NCBI RefSeq assembly: GCF_021531595.1
Contig: NZ_JADYUD010000014.1
Coordinates: 1 to 50,993 of the forward strand
Direction of reading: 5' to 3'
DNA: 50,993 nucleotides
Source of the DNA: Fusobacterium perfoetens
Lineage (GTDB): Bacteria; Fusobacteriota; Fusobacteriia; Fusobacteriales; Fusobacteriaceae
Made by a program: the position numbers and the translations under genes. Below the pieces are notes generated by a model. The model worked only from the letters and a program-made list of their open reading frames with translations. It was not told the DNA's origin and made no database searches. How positions within the stretch are numbered: position 1 is the first letter of the stretch; every line of letters starts with the position of its first letter. Positions 1,673 through 9,248 of this stretch are shown here, one piece after another.

Positions 1673-2680
1673 ATGATTTTAATTGAAAAAGTCAACAAAA
1701 TATACTCAAATGGCTTTCATGCAGTAAAGAATGTTGACTTAGAAATAAAAAAGGGAGATATATTTGGAATTATAGGTCTTAGTGGTGCAGGAAAATCCTC
1801 ACTTATAAGGCTTATTAACAGACTTGAAGAGCCTACAAGTGGAAAAGTAATAATTGATGGAGTGGATATCACTTCTCTTTCAAAAACTGAACTTCTTGAA
1901 AAAAGAAAAAAAATAGGAATGATTTTCCAGCATTTTAATCTTCTTTCTTCAAGAACTGTAGGAGAAAATGTTGCTTTTGCATTAGAGATAGCAAAATGGG
2001 ATAAAAATAAAATTCAAGAAAGAGTAAAAGATCTTTTAGAACTTGTTGAACTATCAGATAAAATAAATTATTATCCTAATCAATTAAGTGGAGGTCAGAA
2101 ACAAAGAGTTGCTATTGCAAGAGCTCTTGCAAATAACCCTGATATTCTTCTTTCTGATGAAGCTACTTCAGCTCTTGATCCAAAAACTACAAAATCTATA
2201 CTTGAACTTATTAAAAGTATTCAAAAAAAACTTGGACTTACTGTTGTAATGATAACACATCAAATGGAAGTTATTAAAGAAATCTGCAATAAAGTAGCTG
2301 TTATGTCTGGAGGACAGATCGTAGAAAAAGGAGGAGTACACCATATTTTCTCAGATCCTCAGTCAGATATTACAAAAGAACTTATCTCATATCTTCCAAG
2401 CACAGATGAAAAAGGAATAGAAGTTATGAAACATAAAGGACAGCATATAGTAAAACTTAAATTCTTAGGAGTAATAGCTGAAGAACCTATCATCTCCCAA
2501 GCTACCAGAAAATTTGATATTGATTTAAATATCATAAGTGGTTCTATAGATAATCTTTCTACAATACAAGTTGGACATCTTTATGTTGAACTTGTAGGAA
2601 ATTTTGAAAAACAAAAACAAGCTATTAAATGGTTTGAAGAATCTGGAGTTATTGTAGAGGTGATATACGATGGTATTTAA
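1673..2680 (+). CDS. metN: Methionine ABC transporter ATP-binding protein MetN
   Basis: ATPase of the MetNIQ importer for methionine. The 335 residues hold Walker A GLSGAGKS at 35-42, the ABC signature LSGGQKQR near 139-146, Walker B with [12 protein letters not shown], and the switch His in ITHQM. From about residue 260 a C-terminal NIL/ACT-type domain follows, which in E. coli MetN binds methionine and mediates transinhibition. The start at 1673 follows a GGGGAGGGG ribosome-binding site. Its last 11 bases overlap metI, indicating translational coupling. It is controlled by the upstream SAM riboswitch. Confidence 0.96.
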
Positions 2681-3398
2681 TATGATTTGGACTTCAACTT
2701 TAGAAACTCTTTATATGGTTTTCTTTTCTACTGTTTTTTCTCTTGCAATAGGTTTTCCTGTAGGAATACTTCTTGTGGTTACAAAAGAAGGGAATATTAT
2801 GGAAAGACCAAAACTTAATCAGTTTCTTGAAATTATTATAAATACTTTAAGATCTTTTCCTTTTATCATTTTGATGATATGTCTATTTCCTCTTTCAAGA
2901 ATTGTAGTGGGAACAACAATTGGAAGCACTGCTGCCATTGTTCCTCTTTCAATATCAGCAGCACCTTTTGTTGCAAGAATGGTTGAAGGAGCATTAAATG
3001 AAATTGACAAAGGTCTTATTGAAGCTGCTTCAAGTATGGGAGCAAGTAATAAAACAATAATTTTTGATGTTATGATTCCTGAGACACTTCCTCATATCAT
3101 ACATGGTATAACTGTTACTGTAATAAGTCTTATAGGATTTTCTGCAATGGCAGGAAGTATAGGAGCAGGGGGACTGGGAGATCTTGCAGTAAGATTTGGA
3201 TACCAAAGATTTAAAACAGATATAATGCTTTATTCTGTGGTTGTAATAATAATTCTTGTTCAAATTTTACAGTCACTTGGAAATTACTTAGCTAAAAAAT
3301 CTGGAACAATGAATAGAAAAAAAATACTACAACATCTAGCTATAATCTTCATTGTCGCTGTTGCTGTAAAATATCTTATAAATTTTTTTAACTTTTAA
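2670..3398 (+). CDS. metI: Methionine ABC transporter permease MetI
   Basis: Inner-membrane permease of the MetNIQ importer, 242 residues with about five to six hydrophobic helices. The conserved EAA loop is visible as [21 protein letters not shown], the contact site for MetN. The start ATG overlaps the end of metN and is preceded by GAGGTG within metN. The C-terminus ends in a hydrophobic helix and a short NFF tail. Third gene of the cluster follows after a 59-bp gap. Confidence 0.95.
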
Positions 3399-3457
3399 AA
3401 ACAGTTTTTAATTTATTTTTAATTATAAATTTTATATTTTTAAGGAGATGGTTATTT

Positions 3458-4249
3458 ATGTCAAACACATTCAAAAGAACTTTACTTTCAACTGCTGCAC
3501 TTTTAATTTTAGGTACTTCTTCTTTTGCTAATACAGTTTTAAAAGTTGGAGCTACTCCTGTTCCTCATGCTGAAATTCTTAATGCTGTAAAAGATAGACT
3601 TGCAAAAGAAGGAATTGATTTAAAAGTTGTAGATTTTACAGACTATGTCACTCCAAATCTTGCTCTTTCTGACGGAGAACTTGATGCAAACTACTTCCAA
3701 CACAAACCTTATCTTGATAAATTCTGTGAAGAAAAAGGTCTTAAACTTAATTCTGCTGGGGGAGTCCATGTTGAACCTATTGGAATTTTCTCTGATAAAC
3801 TAAAATCTATAAATGATATTCCTAACAAAGCTGTTGTTGCTATACCAAATGATCCTTCAAATGGAGGAAGAGCACTTATTCTTCTTCACAATGCAGGAAT
3901 TATTACTTTAAACGATCCTTCAAATTTATATGCAACAGAATTTGATGTTGTAAAAAATCCTAAAAAACTTAAATTCAAAACACTTGAAGCAGCTCAACTT
4001 CCAAGAGTTTTAAAAGATGTTGATTTTGCTGTAATAAATGGAAACTATGCTTTAGAAGCTGGACTTTCTCCAGTTGAAGATGCTCTTCTTCTTGAAGGTA
4101 AAGAATCTCCTTATACTAATATAGTTGCTGTTAAAGCTGGAGATGAAAAAAGAGAAGATATTGTTAAATTAATAGAAGTTTTAAACAGCCCTGAAACTGC
4201 TGAATTTATAAATAATACTTATAAAGGTGGAGTAGTTCCTGCTTTCTAG
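3458..4249 (+). CDS. metQ: Methionine-binding protein MetQ (non-lipidated form)
   Basis: Substrate-binding protein of the MetNIQ transporter (NlpA family), 263 residues. Residues 1-24 form a Sec signal peptide (basic start, LLSTAALLILG core, SSFA cut site) and the mature protein begins NTVLKVGATPVPHAEIL, the NlpA-family hallmark. No cysteine sits at the cleavage site, so unlike most MetQ/NlpA proteins it is predicted to be a soluble periplasmic protein rather than a lipoprotein. The ribosome-binding site is AAGGAG. It is followed by a bidirectional terminator shared with the convergent nhaC gene. Confidence 0.93.
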   Translation: MSNTFKRTLLSTAALLILGTSSFANTVLKVGATPVPHAEILNAVKDRLAKEGIDLKVVDFTDYVTPNLALSDGELDANYFQHKPYLDKFCEEKGLKLNSAGGVHVEPIGIFSDKLKSINDIPNKAVVAIPNDPSNGGRALILLHNAGIITLNDPSNLYATEFDVVKNPKKLKFKTLEAAQLPRVLKDVDFAVINGNYALEAGLSPVEDALLLEGKESPYTNIVAVKAGDEKREDIVKLIEVLNSPETAEFINNTYKGGVVPAF

Positions 4250-4321: not shown

Positions 4322-5683
4322 TTATACTTCTGTTATAGATTCATGATGTTCTTTTGCTACACGGGCAAATTCTTTTTCCTCAGAAGTTCTTAATAATCCA
4401 AACTTAATTGTTACAAGTGTTGCTAAAATTAAGAATACAGGATAGTATGCAAATTTTAATATATCAAGAGGAGATACATGTCCCATACCTGTCATAATAA
4501 GCATTCCACCATCGTGAGGGCAAAGAGCAAGTGTTCCACAAGCAAAAATATCTATAAGACTTGCAAGTCTTTTTGGTGCAATATGATATTTAGAACCTAT
4601 TTCTTTAGCTATTGGGGCAGATATAATAATTGCAACAGTATTATTTACAAGTGCTGCAGCAAGAGATCCTGCAAGAATTCCTATTCCATATTCAGCTCCG
4701 CTTCTTGTTTTTACTTTAGAAGTTATTTTTTCAATAAGCCATTCAATTCCACCATTTTCTTTAATAACACCAATTATACCTGCAATCAGAATTGCTACAA
4801 TTGTAATTCCCATCATATCTTCCATTCCACCACCAATGGCTTTAATAAATGGAAGGAAACCTACACTTCCTGTTGCAAGTCCCACTATTCCACAAAGAAC
4901 TATTCCTCCCATAAGGACAAGAACAACATTTCCTCCTGCAAGAGCTCCTGCAAGAACAAGAAGATAAGGTACAACTTTTATAAAGTGGAAAGTAAGATCT
5001 CCTTCAATCTCTCCTGCTTTACCTAAAATTGTATAAAGAACTATTGTAATAAGTGCTGCTGGTATAGCTATTAAGAAGTTCATTCTAAACTTATCTTTCA
5101 TTTCACAGCCAACTCCTCTTGTTGCAGAAATTGTTGTATCTGATAAAATTGAAAGGTTATCTCCAAAATATGCTCCTCCCATAACTGCTGCAAGTGTTAT
5201 TGCTACATCCATATTACTTTTTGCTGCAACTCCAACAGCTATTGGTGCCATAGCTGCCATTGTTCCCATTGATGTTCCCATAGCAGTTGCTATGAAACAA
5301 GAAATTAAGAATATTCCTGGAACTATAAATGTTGATGGTATGAAAGTAAGACCTAAGTTAACTACTGATTCAACTCCACCCATAGATTTTGCTGCTCCCG
5401 AAAATCCTCCTGCAAGAAGATAGATAAGACCCATTATCATTACACCTGATGAACCTGCATTTTTAGAAAAAACTTCTATCTTATCATCTATCTTTTTGTT
5501 CTTATTCATAAGAACTGCAACTCCAATAGCTATAAACAAAGCTACATGACGAGGAAATTGGTTAAAAGGTGATGCTGATCCTTTTATTGAAAAAAATACT
5601 CCACTTCCTATATACAATCCTAAAAAAATAAACAGCGGAAGAAACGATATTCCTCCAAGACCTTTTTTGTTATCTGCTGCCAT
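4322..5683 (-). CDS. nhaC: NhaC-family Na+/H+ antiporter-like transporter
   Basis: Polytopic inner-membrane carrier of 453 residues with about 10-12 hydrophobic segments. It carries the NhaC-family motif GDNLSILSDTT near residue 175 and the second half-repeat motif around NNTVAIIISAPIAKEI. The NhaC family includes Na+/H+ antiporters, malate-lactate antiporters and methionine or lysine carriers, so the true substrate is open. It follows the C-S lyase gene by 27 bp under a shared sigma-54 promoter, so import of a sulfur amino acid or export of a lyase product is a reasonable inference. The start is preceded by a GGGG-type ribosome-binding site. Confidence 0.88.
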   Translation of the reverse strand: MAADNKKGLGGISFLPLFIFLGLYIGSGVFFSIKGSASPFNQFPRHVALFIAIGVAVLMNKNKKIDDKIEVFSKNAGSSGVMIMGLIYLLAGGFSGAAKSMGGVESVVNLGLTFIPSTFIVPGIFLISCFIATAMGTSMGTMAAMAPIAVGVAAKSNMDVAITLAAVMGGAYFGDNLSILSDTTISATRGVGCEMKDKFRMNFLIAIPAALITIVLYTILGKAGEIEGDLTFHFIKVVPYLLVLAGALAGGNVVLVLMGGIVLCGIVGLATGSVGFLPFIKAIGGGMEDMMGITIVAILIAGIIGVIKENGGIEWLIEKITSKVKTRSGAEYGIGILAGSLAAALVNNTVAIIISAPIAKEIGSKYHIAPKRLASLIDIFACGTLALCPHDGGMLIMTGMGHVSPLDILKFAYYPVFLILATLVTIKFGLLRTSEEKEFARVAKEHHESITEV

Positions 5684-5710: not shown

Positions 5711-6898
5711 TTATTTATTTCTCCACATTTTTATTGCATTCTCTATTCTTTTCATACCCTCTTCAACCATATATCTTGGGCATGCTATATTCATTCTTTC
5801 AAATCCTGCTCCATTTTCTCCAAACCAGAAACCATCATCAAGAGCAATTTTTGCATCTTTTTGCATAAACATTGAAAGTTCCTCTTTTGTCATTCCAAGA
5901 GCTGAGAAATCAAGCCACATTAAATATGTTCCTTCAGGTTTTCTAACTTTTACTTCTGGAATATTTTCTTTTACAAAGTTTATTACATAATCCATATTTC
6001 CGTCAAGATGAACTAAAAGTTCTTCAAGCCATTCTTCTCCTTTTGTATAGGCTGCTTCAAATCCTACTAAACTGAAAGGACTGTTTCTTTTTACATCTAG
6101 TCTTCCAAGTTCTTCATCAAGCATTTTCCACTCTTCTTCTCTTGGAAGTGTTACAAATGAAGCCTGAAGTCCTGCTATATTAAATGTTTTTGTAGGAGAG
6201 AAACATGTTATTGTATTATACTCTGCCTCTTTGCTTACAGAAGCTGCTGGAGTATGTTTATGCCCTGGCATAATAATATCTCTCCAAATTTCATCTGCAA
6301 TCACTCTTACATTATATTTTAAGCAAAGTTCTGACATTTTTTCAAGTTCTTCTTTTTTCCATACTCTTCCAACAGGGTTATGAGGACTGCAAAGAATGAA
6401 AAGTGTCACTTTTTCATCTGATACTTTTTTCTCAAAATCTTCAAAGTCTATTGTATAATATCCTGTTTCATCTTTCACAAGGTTATTTACTACAAGTTCT
6501 CTGTTATTTTCTTTTACAACTGCTGAGAAAGGATAATATACAGGACTCTGAATAAGAACTTTTTCATCTGCTTTTGTCATAAGTCTAACAAGTATTGATA
6601 GTGTAGGTACAACCCCAGGACTGTTTATTAAAGTTTTCGCATCTATTTTATATCCGAATCTTCTTTCAATCCAGTCAGCTGCACTTTGATAATATGATGC
6701 AGGTCTGTACACATATCCGAATATTCCCTGTTCTAATTTTTCTCTCATTGCATCAATTATTACAGGAGCTGTTTTTAAATCCATATCAGCTATCCACATA
6801 GGCCATAAATCATTAGAGATAAATTTATTTCCCATTTCCTCCCATTTAGCTGAATGGTTGTTGCTTCTGTCAATTTTTTCATTAAAATTATATTTCAT
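5711..6898 (-). CDS. patB: PatB/MalY-type cysteine-S-conjugate beta-lyase
   Basis: Fold-type I PLP enzyme of the MalY/PatB subgroup, 395 residues. The start matches the subgroup (FNEKIDRSNNHSAKWE... and the WIADMD motif near residue 35). The PLP lysine is in SPTKTFNIAGL near residue 235, with the CSPHNPVGRVW and ADEIWRDI motifs before it. These enzymes cleave C-S bonds of cystathionine, cysteine or S-conjugates to give pyruvate, ammonia and a thiol or H2S, a known trait of oral and gut fusobacteria. AAGGAG precedes the ATG. It is the first gene of the sigma-54 driven unit with nhaC. Confidence 0.9.
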   Translation of the reverse strand: MKYNFNEKIDRSNNHSAKWEEMGNKFISNDLWPMWIADMDLKTAPVIIDAMREKLEQGIFGYVYRPASYYQSAADWIERRFGYKIDAKTLINSPGVVPTLSILVRLMTKADEKVLIQSPVYYPFSAVVKENNRELVVNNLVKDETGYYTIDFEDFEKKVSDEKVTLFILCSPHNPVGRVWKKEELEKMSELCLKYNVRVIADEIWRDIIMPGHKHTPAASVSKEAEYNTITCFSPTKTFNIAGLQASFVTLPREEEWKMLDEELGRLDVKRNSPFSLVGFEAAYTKGEEWLEELLVHLDGNMDYVINFVKENIPEVKVRKPEGTYLMWLDFSALGMTKEELSMFMQKDAKIALDDGFWFGENGAGFERMNIACPRYMVEEGMKRIENAIKMWRNK

Positions 6899-6991
6899 TT
6901 TAACATCTCCTTATTAATATAAATGTCATTCTTTTATAAAAAAGTTTTATTTAAGAATTATACATTTCATTTTATTACACAATTTTATATT

Positions 6992-7009
6992 TAGCAATTT
7001 TTATGCCAA
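6992..7009 (-). promoter_or_regulatory. Sigma-54 (-24/-12) promoter of patB-nhaC
   Basis: On the minus strand TTGGCATAAAAATTGCTA carries GG (7007-7006) and GC (6995-6994) exactly 10 bases apart, matching the sigma-54 consensus TGGCAC-N5-TTGCA closely. It lies about 95-110 bp upstream of the patB start, with transcription expected near 6982. The divergent neighbour encodes a sigma-54 AAA+ activator, which makes the assignment much stronger than the motif alone. Confidence 0.85.
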
Positions 7010-7099
7010 AATATAAGTTTTTTATAGATACTTAATTTTAGAGCATCTGACTTAAATTTATTTTTTTTTAATTTTTTTAAATTGGTTTTTTTATTTTTT

Positions 7100-7153
7100 A
7101 ACCTGTTTTTATAGGTTTTTTAGGTTGTAATAACCTAAAAAATATTATAAAAT
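7100..7153. promoter_or_regulatory. Enhancer palindrome overlapping activator promoter
   Basis: A perfect 11-bp inverted repeat TTTTTTAGGTT (7116-7126) / AACCTAAAAAA (7132-7142) with a 5-bp spacer, plus a further AACCT...AGGTT pair at 7100-7104 and 7113-7117. It sits about 115-160 bp upstream of the sigma-54 start, a normal place for an upstream activating site. TTGTAA (7125-7130), 17 bp, TAAAAT (7148-7153) reads as a sigma-70 promoter for the divergent activator, with its -35 inside the palindrome. This suggests autoregulation. Confidence 0.6.
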
Positions 7154-7208
7154 AATAATTATACATTAATCTATCAGTTTTAAATTTTATATAAAAAAAT
7201 AATTTCCT

Positions 7209-9248
7209 ATGGAGGTGTTTAAAATTTCTTTAAAAATTGCAGTTATTTCAGCTGGTAAAGATGTAGGACTTTTTTATAAAAAACAACTTGAATATTTTTT
7301 TGCTGATGCAGTTGAACTTTATACATATTCTATTGAAGATGGAACAGCCTATTCTCCTAAAACAGAGGATATTTTTCTTATAACCACTATTTCTTTTGAC
7401 AGTCATAATGAAGTTTTAAGGTATATTCCTAAAGACAAGCACATTGTTAATGGGACTATTACCGTAAGAAACAGCACCATTGAAAAACTAAAAAAATTAC
7501 CTTCAGGAACAAAAGCCCTTCTTGTAAATTCTACAAAATCCATGTGTGAAGAATCCATTGTTCTTCTTCATCAAAAAGGAATAAACAATATTTCTTTTTC
7601 TCCTTATTATCCTGGATGTAAGGAAAAATATGAAGATATTCCTCTTGCTATAACTCCTGGGGAAGCTCACTTTGCCCCTGCTGGAAAAGAAATTATAGAT
7701 ATTGGAAACAGAGTTCTTGATACAAATACTATCCTGGAAATTATCTCTTTTACAGACTGTGAATACCTTTTAAAAACAGACAGACTTATAAATTACTTTG
7801 ATGAAATTTCTGAAAATAATACTGGAGTAGAGTCTCTTATTTCAAAGATGGAACTTGCCACACAACAATTTAATATACTTTTTCGTCTTTCCAGTGAAGG
7901 AATTATTCTAGTTGATAAAAAAAATAATATTATAATGTGCAATCAAAAAGCAAACGACTTTTTAGAAAAAGGAAGGATAGATATTCTTTATAAGCCAGCT
8001 TCAAGTGCTTTTCAAAATAATATTTTTGAGCAGGCTGCAAAAGATCAGATTACTAAAACAGTTCTTCTTCTTTCCCCTTCCGGAATTAAATTAAAATTAA
8101 AGGTTATTCCTATAGTCAAACATGGAATTTATCTTTCTGGAATAGGGATAATAAATAGAGCAAATCCTGAAGATGAAATAATGACAAGTGCTGTTAACAA
8201 AATCTTAAAAAAGGGACATATTGCAAGATATACATTTGATTCAATTATTACTAAAAGTAAAAATGTAATCAAAATAAAGGAAGTTGCTAAAAAAATGGCA
8301 AAATCAAATTCTGCTGTCCTTATCACAGGAGAAAGTGGAACTGGAAAAGAACTCTTTGCTCATTCTATTCACAACTATTCTTCAAGAAGAGATAAACCTT
8401 TCGTTGCTATAAACTGTGCTGCTCTTGCTGATAATCTTTTGGAAAGTGAACTTTTTGGATATGAAGAAGGAGCTTTTACTGGAGCGAAAAAAGGAGGAAA
8501 AACAGGTCTTTTTGAAATTGCAAATAACGGAACTCTTTTTCTTGATGAAATTGAAGGAATGAGTAAAAATCTTCAGTTTAAACTTCTTCGTGTTATTCAG
8601 GAAAAAGAAATTATAAAAGTTGGAGGAGATGAAATGATTCCTATTGATGTAAGGATTATTGCTGCTTCCAATGAAAATTTAGGAGAACTTGTTGAAAATA
8701 AAGTCTTCAGACAAGACCTTTATTACAGATTAAATACTCTTCCTATAACTATTCCTCCTTTAAGAGAGAGAATAGACGATCTTTATCTTCTTATAGAAGA
8801 TTTTAAGCAGGAAATGGATTTTAATTTTATATTTACAAAAGCATCAAAACATCTTATTGAGAACTATACATGGCCTGGAAATATAAGAGAATTAAGAAAC
8901 TGTATTGAATATCTTGGATGTCTTGGAGAAACTATTATTGAACCTGAAATGTTCCCTCAGAACATGAATTCTTTAAATAAAAACATTACAAAACCATCTT
9001 CTTATGAAGAAAAAAATATTTTCTATGAAACTGCATTTGTTATAGGCGAACTTGAAAAAAAAGGAAAATCTTGCGGAAGAAAAAGTATTTCTGAAGAACT
9101 AAAAAATAAAAATATTTATATTTCTGAAGCTAAAATAAGAAAAATTCTTGAAAATATGAAAAACGACGGACTTATTTCTTCTGGAGAAGGAAGAACAGGA
9201 TCAAAACTTACTTCTTTTGGAAGAAAAAAATTTAATATTTTTGAATAA
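7209..9248 (+). CDS. Sigma-54-dependent AAA+ transcriptional activator
   Basis: Enhancer-binding protein of up to 679 residues. Residues about 8-200 form a sensor domain starting [10 protein letters not shown], loosely reminiscent of PrpR_N-type regulators, followed by a PAS-like segment at about 215-300 ([24 protein letters not shown]). The AAA+ core has Walker A GESGTGKE near 373 and the sigma-54 loop GAFTGA near 420, LFLDEIEGM (Walker B), and the [14 protein letters not shown] helix. The C-terminus (from about 600) is not a Fis-type HTH but looks like a winged helix ([19 protein letters not shown]). The ATG at 7209 lies upstream of GGAGG (7211-7215), so the true start may be downstream, possibly the ATT at 7224. 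It is divergent from patB-nhaC, its probable target. Confidence 0.9.

What the first reader, a model, noticed from the sequence alone, without database searches (positions are those of the whole stretch)
6899..7208. A complete sigma-54 switch for a C-S lyase and NhaC-type carrier
The sequence shows a -24/-12 promoter with the exact GG-N10-GC geometry (7007-6994) ahead of patB-nhaC, a divergent AAA+ activator with GAFTGA, and a palindrome with AGGTT/AACCT half-sites (7100-7142) at the right upstream distance. The palindrome also covers the -35 of the activator's own promoter. Taken together this predicts that cysteine or S-conjugate degradation, and hence H2S and pyruvate output, is switched on by sigma-54 in response to a ligand of the activator. 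The carrier may import the lyase substrate.
Basis: partly seen in the sequence, partly recalled or inferred. Interest (0 to 1): 0.72.

Follow-up and report, generated by a model that had tools for sequence, protein, structure and literature searches.

The report
Sigma-54 switch for sulfur amino-acid lyase
In an anaerobic bacterium, probably of the phylum Fusobacteriota, an enzyme that cuts carbon-sulfur bonds and its partner carrier sit behind a sigma-54 promoter and a dedicated activator; the arrangement is genuine and recurs in relatives, it is a new variant of a known kind of switch, and what it senses is still unproven.

Summary
Window 7009-6993(-) is a perfect -24/-12 box, one of five perfect sites in a 2.06-Mb genome that encodes RpoN. 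Four AACCT/AGGTT half-sites lie at 7100-7136, and the divergent activator has Walker A and GAFTGA.
Comparison supports one working unit. All 10 patB loci (62% identity or more) beside this activator family have the box; none of 13 without it does. In a sister species lacking the adjacent activator, box and half-sites are gone while flanks stay nearly identical. Half-sites are enriched at activator-linked patB promoters in two phyla, not at other sigma-54 promoters.
Corrections: the half-sites are a cluster of variable geometry, not one palindrome; the -35 overlap is at chance level; the carrier is not an NhaC orthologue; the activator ends in a winged helix, not a Fis-type HTH. Most patB-nhaC orthologues lack the box and several adjoin a MocR-type regulator, so sigma-54 control looks acquired. 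A sulfur amino-acid signal is inferred from linked genes, not shown.
Closest parallels: CdsR-cdsB and MdeR-mdeA-metT of Clostridia. Verdict: real, a new variant of a known kind.

The parts
6993..7009 (-). -24/-12 (sigma-54) promoter TTGGCATAAAAATTGCT; GG-N10-GC at 7007-6994; predicted start near 6982
   Evidence: perfect consensus match, 5 perfect sites in 2.06 Mb; present at all activator-adjacent patB loci
7122..7136 (.). inverted half-site pair AGGTT-N5-AACCT, part of the putative upstream activating sequence
7100..7117 (.). second pair AACCT-N8-AGGTT of the putative upstream activating sequence
   Evidence: tandem AACC with 9-bp spacing recurs at C8, G030, G031
5711..6898 (-). patB: PatB-family PLP-dependent C-S lyase, 395 aa, PLP-lysine motif SPTK (K237)
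   Evidence: TIGR04350 454 bits, cut-off 340; PDB relatives 4dgt (2e-155) and PatB 6qp3; motif
4322..5683 (-). nhaC-like carrier, 453 aa, Na_H_antiporter family, second gene of the operon
   Evidence: PF03553 110.9 bits; 27-bp gap to patB; pair conserved in many genomes
7209..9248 (+). sigma-54 activator (listed from ATG 7209; probable true start ATT 7224): unassigned N-terminal domain, PAS (about 209-325), AAA+ with GAFTGA, C-terminal winged helix
7211..7226 (+). Shine-Dalgarno GGAGG (7211-7215) plus candidate ATT start codon (7224-7226); the aligned ATT is kept in relative G032 (L042), where an in-frame TGA excludes an upstream start

Best explanation
patB-nhaC is transcribed by sigma-54 RNA polymerase from the box at 7009-6993(-). 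The divergently encoded one-component activator binds the AACCT/AGGTT cluster at 7100-7136 (centre about 136 bp upstream of the predicted start) through its winged helix, is switched by a small molecule sensed by its N-terminal/PAS region, and uses its AAA+ GAFTGA motor to open the promoter. The carrier moves an amino acid or thiol compound across the membrane (most simply, it imports the lyase substrate) and PatB splits its C-S bond, giving pyruvate, ammonia and a thiol or sulfide. Shown by sequence and comparison: the box, RpoN, the activator and its motifs, half-site conservation, and the coupled presence or absence of activator and box. Inferred: direct binding, start site, inducing ligand (L-cysteine/cystine or a cysteine conjugate, about 0.5), and direction of transport. 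The confidence given is for the sigma-54/activator/site switch, not for the ligand.
For: Perfect box and RpoN. All 10 patB loci (62% identity or more) next to this activator family have the box 36-110 bp before the ATG; 0 of 13 without it do (Fisher 9e-7, ignoring shared ancestry). Natural experiment: G031 and G033 patB loci have near-identical flanks and PatB, but G033 lacks the adjacent activator and has lost box and half-sites while keeping RpoN. GGTT/AACC: 35 observed against 12.6 expected at 12 activator-linked patB promoters (0 of 2000 shuffles) and 2 against 4.7 at 12 other sigma-54 promoters; recurrent offset -85/-86. The same activator-box-patB linkage occurs in Bacillota, including Clostridium sp. 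OS1-26, Tissierellales and Sedimentibacter. The carrier beside PatB belongs to different families in different loci (NhaC-like, SDF, amino-acid permease), as expected if it serves the lyase. Linked genes include CyuA homologues and a D-cysteine desulfhydrase-family enzyme.
Against: No transcript, binding or transport data. A sigma-70-like string TTGGCA-N16-TAAAAT overlaps the box, though most relatives lack that -10. Half-site geometry varies and locus L150 has none. The CyuA homologues next to patB2 have Val in place of a catalytic Cys, which weakens the cysteine inference. Other activators of the wider family sit beside lysA, M20 peptidase or DcuC genes, so one ligand for the whole family is unlikely. 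Most patB-nhaC orthologues have no sigma-54 box.
Confidence: 0.87

Rival explanations
1. patB-nhaC is expressed from a sigma-70 promoter (TTGGCA from 7009, TAAAAT ending at 6982, 16-nt spacer) and the activator regulates something else.
For: 10 of 12 consensus match at 7009-6982.
Against: Such strings are as common in shuffles (24 vs 24.3). In the 14 other activator-linked promoters compared, the -24/-12 box is kept while a 5-of-6 match to the -10 at 16-18 nt is seen in only two. The box disappears with the activator in G033.
Confidence: 0.06
2. The switch is real but responds to something other than cysteine-type sulfur compounds (for example a general amino-acid cue or a non-sulfur beta-substituted alanine), and PatB and the carrier act on that compound.
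For: Family members adjoin lysA, M20 peptidase/DcuC and CoA-transferase genes. The patB2-linked CyuA homologues lack the catalytic Cys. PatB-family lyases accept many substrates (general knowledge).
Against: PatB, CyuA homologues, a D-cysteine desulfhydrase-family enzyme and carriers recur in the closest relatives' loci. Another perfect sigma-54 site of the same genome precedes a CyuA homologue with all catalytic residues, although its upstream repeats differ.
Confidence: 0.35
3. The AACCT/AGGTT cluster is not the activator's site but AT-rich chance sequence or a site for another regulator.
For: Geometry differs between loci; L150 lacks it.
Against: Enrichment only at activator-linked patB promoters across two phyla and recurrent position; loss together with the activator in G033.
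Confidence: 0.08

Closest known systems
CdsR-cdsB of Clostridioides difficile (PMC5767170)
   Same: Sigma-54 plus a one-component activator encoded next to its target; sulfur amino-acid degradation; upstream inverted repeats; cysteine-induced in the known case.
   Different: CdsR is 591 aa, PAS-AAA-Fis; the window activator has an extra N-terminal domain and a winged helix. The target here is PatB plus a carrier, not a CyuA/CdsB-type desulfidase, and induction is untested.
MdeR-mdeA-metT of Clostridium (PMC6615313)
   Same: Predicted sigma-54 control of a sulfur amino-acid lyase together with its carrier.
   Different: Methionine catabolism by MdeA; upstream motif TGT-N10-12-ACA instead of AACCT/AGGTT.
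OrdR-ord...nhaC of Clostridiales (PMC6615313)
   Same: An nhaC gene in an amino-acid catabolic operon predicted to be under sigma-54 control.
   Different: Ornithine pathway; other enzymes and upstream motif.
DVU0151 of Desulfovibrio vulgaris (PMC4641369)
   Same: Sigma-54 activator whose C-terminal DNA-binding domain looks like a winged helix, with a long N-terminal region, divergent from its target.
   Different: GAFSEA instead of GAFTGA; transport target; no link to C-S lyases reported.
CyuR-cyuPA of Escherichia coli (PMC9040844)
   Same: Importer plus desulfidase controlled by a dedicated cysteine-responsive activator.
   Different: CyuR is not a sigma-54 activator (general knowledge); the enzyme is Fe-S CyuA rather than PLP-dependent PatB.

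Membership tests
sigma-54-dependent promoter | GG-N10-GC within TGGCAYR-N4-TTGCW | tested here: met
   0 mismatches
sigma-54-dependent promoter | genome encodes RpoN | tested here: met
   PF04552 E 1e-40, 421-aa open frame
sigma-54-dependent promoter | candidate activator site about 80-200 bp upstream of the start | tested here: met
   half-sites 7100-7136, predicted start 6982; enrichment. Binding itself not tested
sigma-54-dependent promoter | transcript starts about 12 nt downstream of the -12 element and needs rpoN | not testable with these tools
   needs RNA work
bacterial enhancer-binding protein | AAA+ domain with Walker A and GAFTGA | tested here: met
   PF00158 231 bits; GESGTGKE and GAFTGA
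bacterial enhancer-binding protein | Fis-type C-terminal HTH (common, not universal) | tested here: not met
   no Fis-type match in Pfam; predicted winged helix (H-H-H-E-E-H), pLDDT 84, best matches LmrR/DtxR/IdeR-type folds, Z about 10-11 over about 75 residues
CdsR | PAS-AAA-Fis architecture of about 590 aa | tested here: not met
   679 aa, extra N-terminal domain, winged helix
CdsR | controls a CyuA/CdsB-type cysteine desulfidase | tested here: not met
   window target is patB-nhaC; the paralogous activator of the same genome adjoins patB2-cyuA
CdsR | induced by cysteine | not testable with these tools
   needs an expression assay
MdeR | upstream motif TGT-N10-12-ACA and mdeA target | tested here: not met
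   AACCT/AGGTT half-sites; PatB, not MdeA
PatB C-S lyase (TIGR04350) | score above the curated cut-off | tested here: met
   453.9 vs 340 bits; PLP-lysine motif SPTK K237
NhaC Na+/H+ antiporter (TIGR00931) | score above the curated equivalog cut-off | tested here: not met
   78.8 vs 370 bits; only the broad Pfam family PF03553 is met
PrpR N-terminal domain (PF06506) | profile match of residues 1-205 | tested here: inconclusive
   no Pfam match in any of 11 members; hhalign with the E. coli PrpR N-terminus, probability 0.1%
CyuA L-cysteine desulfidase (linked loci) | homology to E. coli CyuA plus catalytic Cys and Glu and three cluster cysteines | tested here: inconclusive
   33-35% identity over full length; the Cys is Val in patB2-linked copies, intact in the G000:C9 and L151 copies

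The most novel reading that the evidence does not exclude
An undescribed family of sigma-54 activators (unassigned N-terminal domain, PAS, AAA+, winged helix, AACC/GGTT half-sites) controls C-S lyases and their carriers across Fusobacteriota and Bacillota, and in this lineage it took the place of a MocR-type regulator at the patB-nhaC operon, converting the operon to strict sigma-54 control.
Probability: 0.5. Interest if true: 0.5.

Novelty: new variant of a known kind. Interest (0 to 1): 0.4.

Why it matters
Fusobacteria are notable hydrogen sulfide producers (PMC9600241), yet sigma-54 control in the phylum is little described (Fusobacterium nucleatum ATCC 25586 has no RpoN, PMC3162934), and I found no description of this switch in the papers searched. 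If right, it gives a defined activator, site and promoter for turning a sulfur amino-acid lyase on and off, shows that this control can be gained and lost at an otherwise stable operon, and offers a testable activator family shared with Clostridia.

Tried and rejected
The single-protein scan of genome contigs with the activator found nothing; a profile of its N-terminal part found the Bacillota relatives. PrpR-type N-terminal domain: no support. Residues 1-205 were not folded alone and PAS matches filled the fold lists, so their fold stays unassigned. No solved structure matches the carrier by sequence. The idea that the window activator is a recent copy of the genome's own patB2 activator was rejected: it groups with G032 and L051, apart from the patB2 clade. 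Loss of MocR regulators from the whole genome is not supported: MocR-type proteins persist elsewhere in G000, only a neighbouring one is missing. The activator's own promoter could not be told from chance.

Full report
1. What is there. Between patB (5711-6898, -) and the divergent activator gene (7209-9248, +) lie 310 bp of 15% G+C DNA. On the patB strand they hold TTGGCATAAAAATTGCT (7009-6993), an exact -24/-12 element, and upstream of it two half-site pairs: AACCT-N8-AGGTT (7117-7100) and AGGTT-N5-AACCT (7136-7122). The perfect 16-mer is expected 0.036 times in the window and essentially never in the intergenic region, and is seen once. In the whole genome it occurs 5 times against 1 for the reversed control; at one mismatch 69 against 4, though most one-mismatch hits begin TGGAA and are probably coding-sequence noise. 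Across the seven genomes of the genus there are 26 perfect sites against 2 in controls. RpoN is encoded in all seven.

2. The genes. PatB exceeds the PatB-family cut-off and is closest among solved structures to 4dgt and PatB 6qp3. The carrier belongs to the broad Na_H_antiporter family, far under the NhaC equivalog cut-off, so 'NhaC-type' should be read loosely. The activator has a full AAA+ domain with GAFTGA, a PAS domain (predicted structure and Pfam), an N-terminal region of about 205 residues that matches no Pfam family, and a C-terminal winged helix rather than the Fis-type HTH found in most such proteins (PMC6615313). One published precedent for a winged helix is DVU0151 (PMC4641369).

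3. Comparative test. Homologues of the activator and of PatB were located in 98 genomes of the phylum and their neighbourhoods fetched. Exact synteny (activator divergent from patB-nhaC) occurs in G032 (L042), with a one-mismatch box and five AGGTT/AACCT half-sites. In eight more loci (L043-L050), including a second copy in this genome (C8), a paralogous patB stands in tandem upstream of the activator, again with a box 36-60 bp before the patB start. In the window the box starts 110 bp before the patB ATG. Thirteen further patB loci (62% identity or more; two at 53% left out) without the activator have no box; their best sites have at least three mismatches. Ten of ten against none of thirteen gives Fisher p 9e-7, which overstates independence because several loci are closely related.

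4. Natural experiment. G031 and G033 are in the same genus and their PatBs are nearly identical. Upstream DNA is nearly identical up to about 115 bp before the box, and again from the Shine-Dalgarno on; the half-site and box segment between is largely deleted or rewritten in G033, which also lacks the adjacent activator but keeps RpoN. This is the strongest single piece of evidence that activator, half-sites and box are one unit.

5. Upstream sites. The half-site core AACC recurs at -85/-86 (relative to the T of TGGC) in C8, G019, G026, G027, G028, G029 and G031, and tandem AACC with 9-bp spacing in window, C8, G030 and G031. At 12 activator-linked patB promoters, including four from Bacillota, GGTT/AACC counts are 35 against 12.6 expected (0 of 2000 shuffles); at 12 other sigma-54 promoters 2 against 4.7. 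A Sedimentibacter locus has a 49-bp palindrome with perfect 20-bp arms built of these half-sites. Geometry varies and L150 lacks them, so 'palindrome' should be read as a half-site cluster. The motif and the groups were chosen after looking at the sequences, so these P-values are descriptive.

6. Evolution. Orthologous patB-nhaC operons in G019, G023, G029 and G052 sit beside a divergent MocR-type regulator (GntR plus aminotransferase domain), G026 has a same-sized divergent neighbour that was not scanned, and none has a sigma-54 box. In the PatB tree the window protein falls near these, while its activator groups with that of G032 (96/92) and apart from the patB2 activators. The simplest reading is that the operon exchanged a MocR regulator for a sigma-54 activator in this lineage; G035 of the same genus has neither next to the operon. 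Branch support around the window PatB is moderate (84-89), so the direction of change is inferred.

7. What it senses. Loci of related activators contain homologues of L-cysteine desulfidase CyuA (33% identity to E. coli CyuA for the C8 copy, none to serine deaminase TdcG), a D-cysteine desulfhydrase-family enzyme and amino-acid carriers of several unrelated families. This points to cysteine-type compounds. Against it, the CyuA homologues next to patB2 have Val in place of a Cys whose replacement by Ala cut activity to 0.4% in an archaeal enzyme (PMC12647591), and more distant family members adjoin other amino-acid genes. I give a cysteine/cystine/conjugate signal about 0.5.

8. Comparison with the known. 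The logic is that of CdsR-cdsB (PMC5767170) and MdeR-mdeA-metT (PMC6615313): sigma-54, a neighbouring one-component activator, a sulfur amino-acid lyase, and in the second case a carrier. It is not a member of either group, because architecture, target and upstream motif differ. I found no description of it among the papers searched, but most subscription literature is not held.

9. Verdict. A real and well-supported regulatory unit, a new variant of a known kind, of moderate interest; the mechanism rests on sequence and comparison only.

Noticed in passing
window 7209-7226; L042 around 6191-6265: The activator probably starts at a rare ATT codon (7224) behind GGAGG (7211-7215); in G032 the aligned ATT is again the best candidate, because an in-frame TGA lies just upstream and no ATG/GTG/TTG precedes the conserved first strand. 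Conserved ATT initiation could hold the activator at a low level.
   Followed up: partly
L122:7608-8948 (G000:C9): A perfect sigma-54 box precedes a CyuA homologue with all catalytic residues and no activator next to it; upstream are repeated TTTTCAAAATGAAAA palindromes, apparently a different activator's site.
   Followed up: partly
L123:10226 (G000:C7): A perfect sigma-54 box precedes an amidohydrolase and xanthine/uracil-type permease operon, with ATCAAAATGAT palindromes upstream.
   Followed up: no
L044:8974-9286, also L045, L046, L047, L049: A second perfect sigma-54 box downstream of the activator gene precedes a small (83-aa) protein without Pfam match, followed by carrier and lyase genes; a terminator-like hairpin lies where an upstream site would be expected.
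   Followed up: no
L043:5303-6580, L048, L049, L050, L135: CyuA-like proteins linked to patB2 have GVTEP in place of GCTEP and an extra CGC motif; their substrate may differ from L-cysteine.
   Followed up: partly
L060:11022-12781 (G000:C7): An activator gene with GAFSGA appears split into two reading frames, possibly a frameshift or a decaying gene.
   Followed up: no
window 1673-4249: A MetNIQ-type ABC transporter lies just beyond the carrier gene, convergent with it; in G030 (L048) a metNIQ set stands directly upstream of patB2 and the activator.
   Followed up: no
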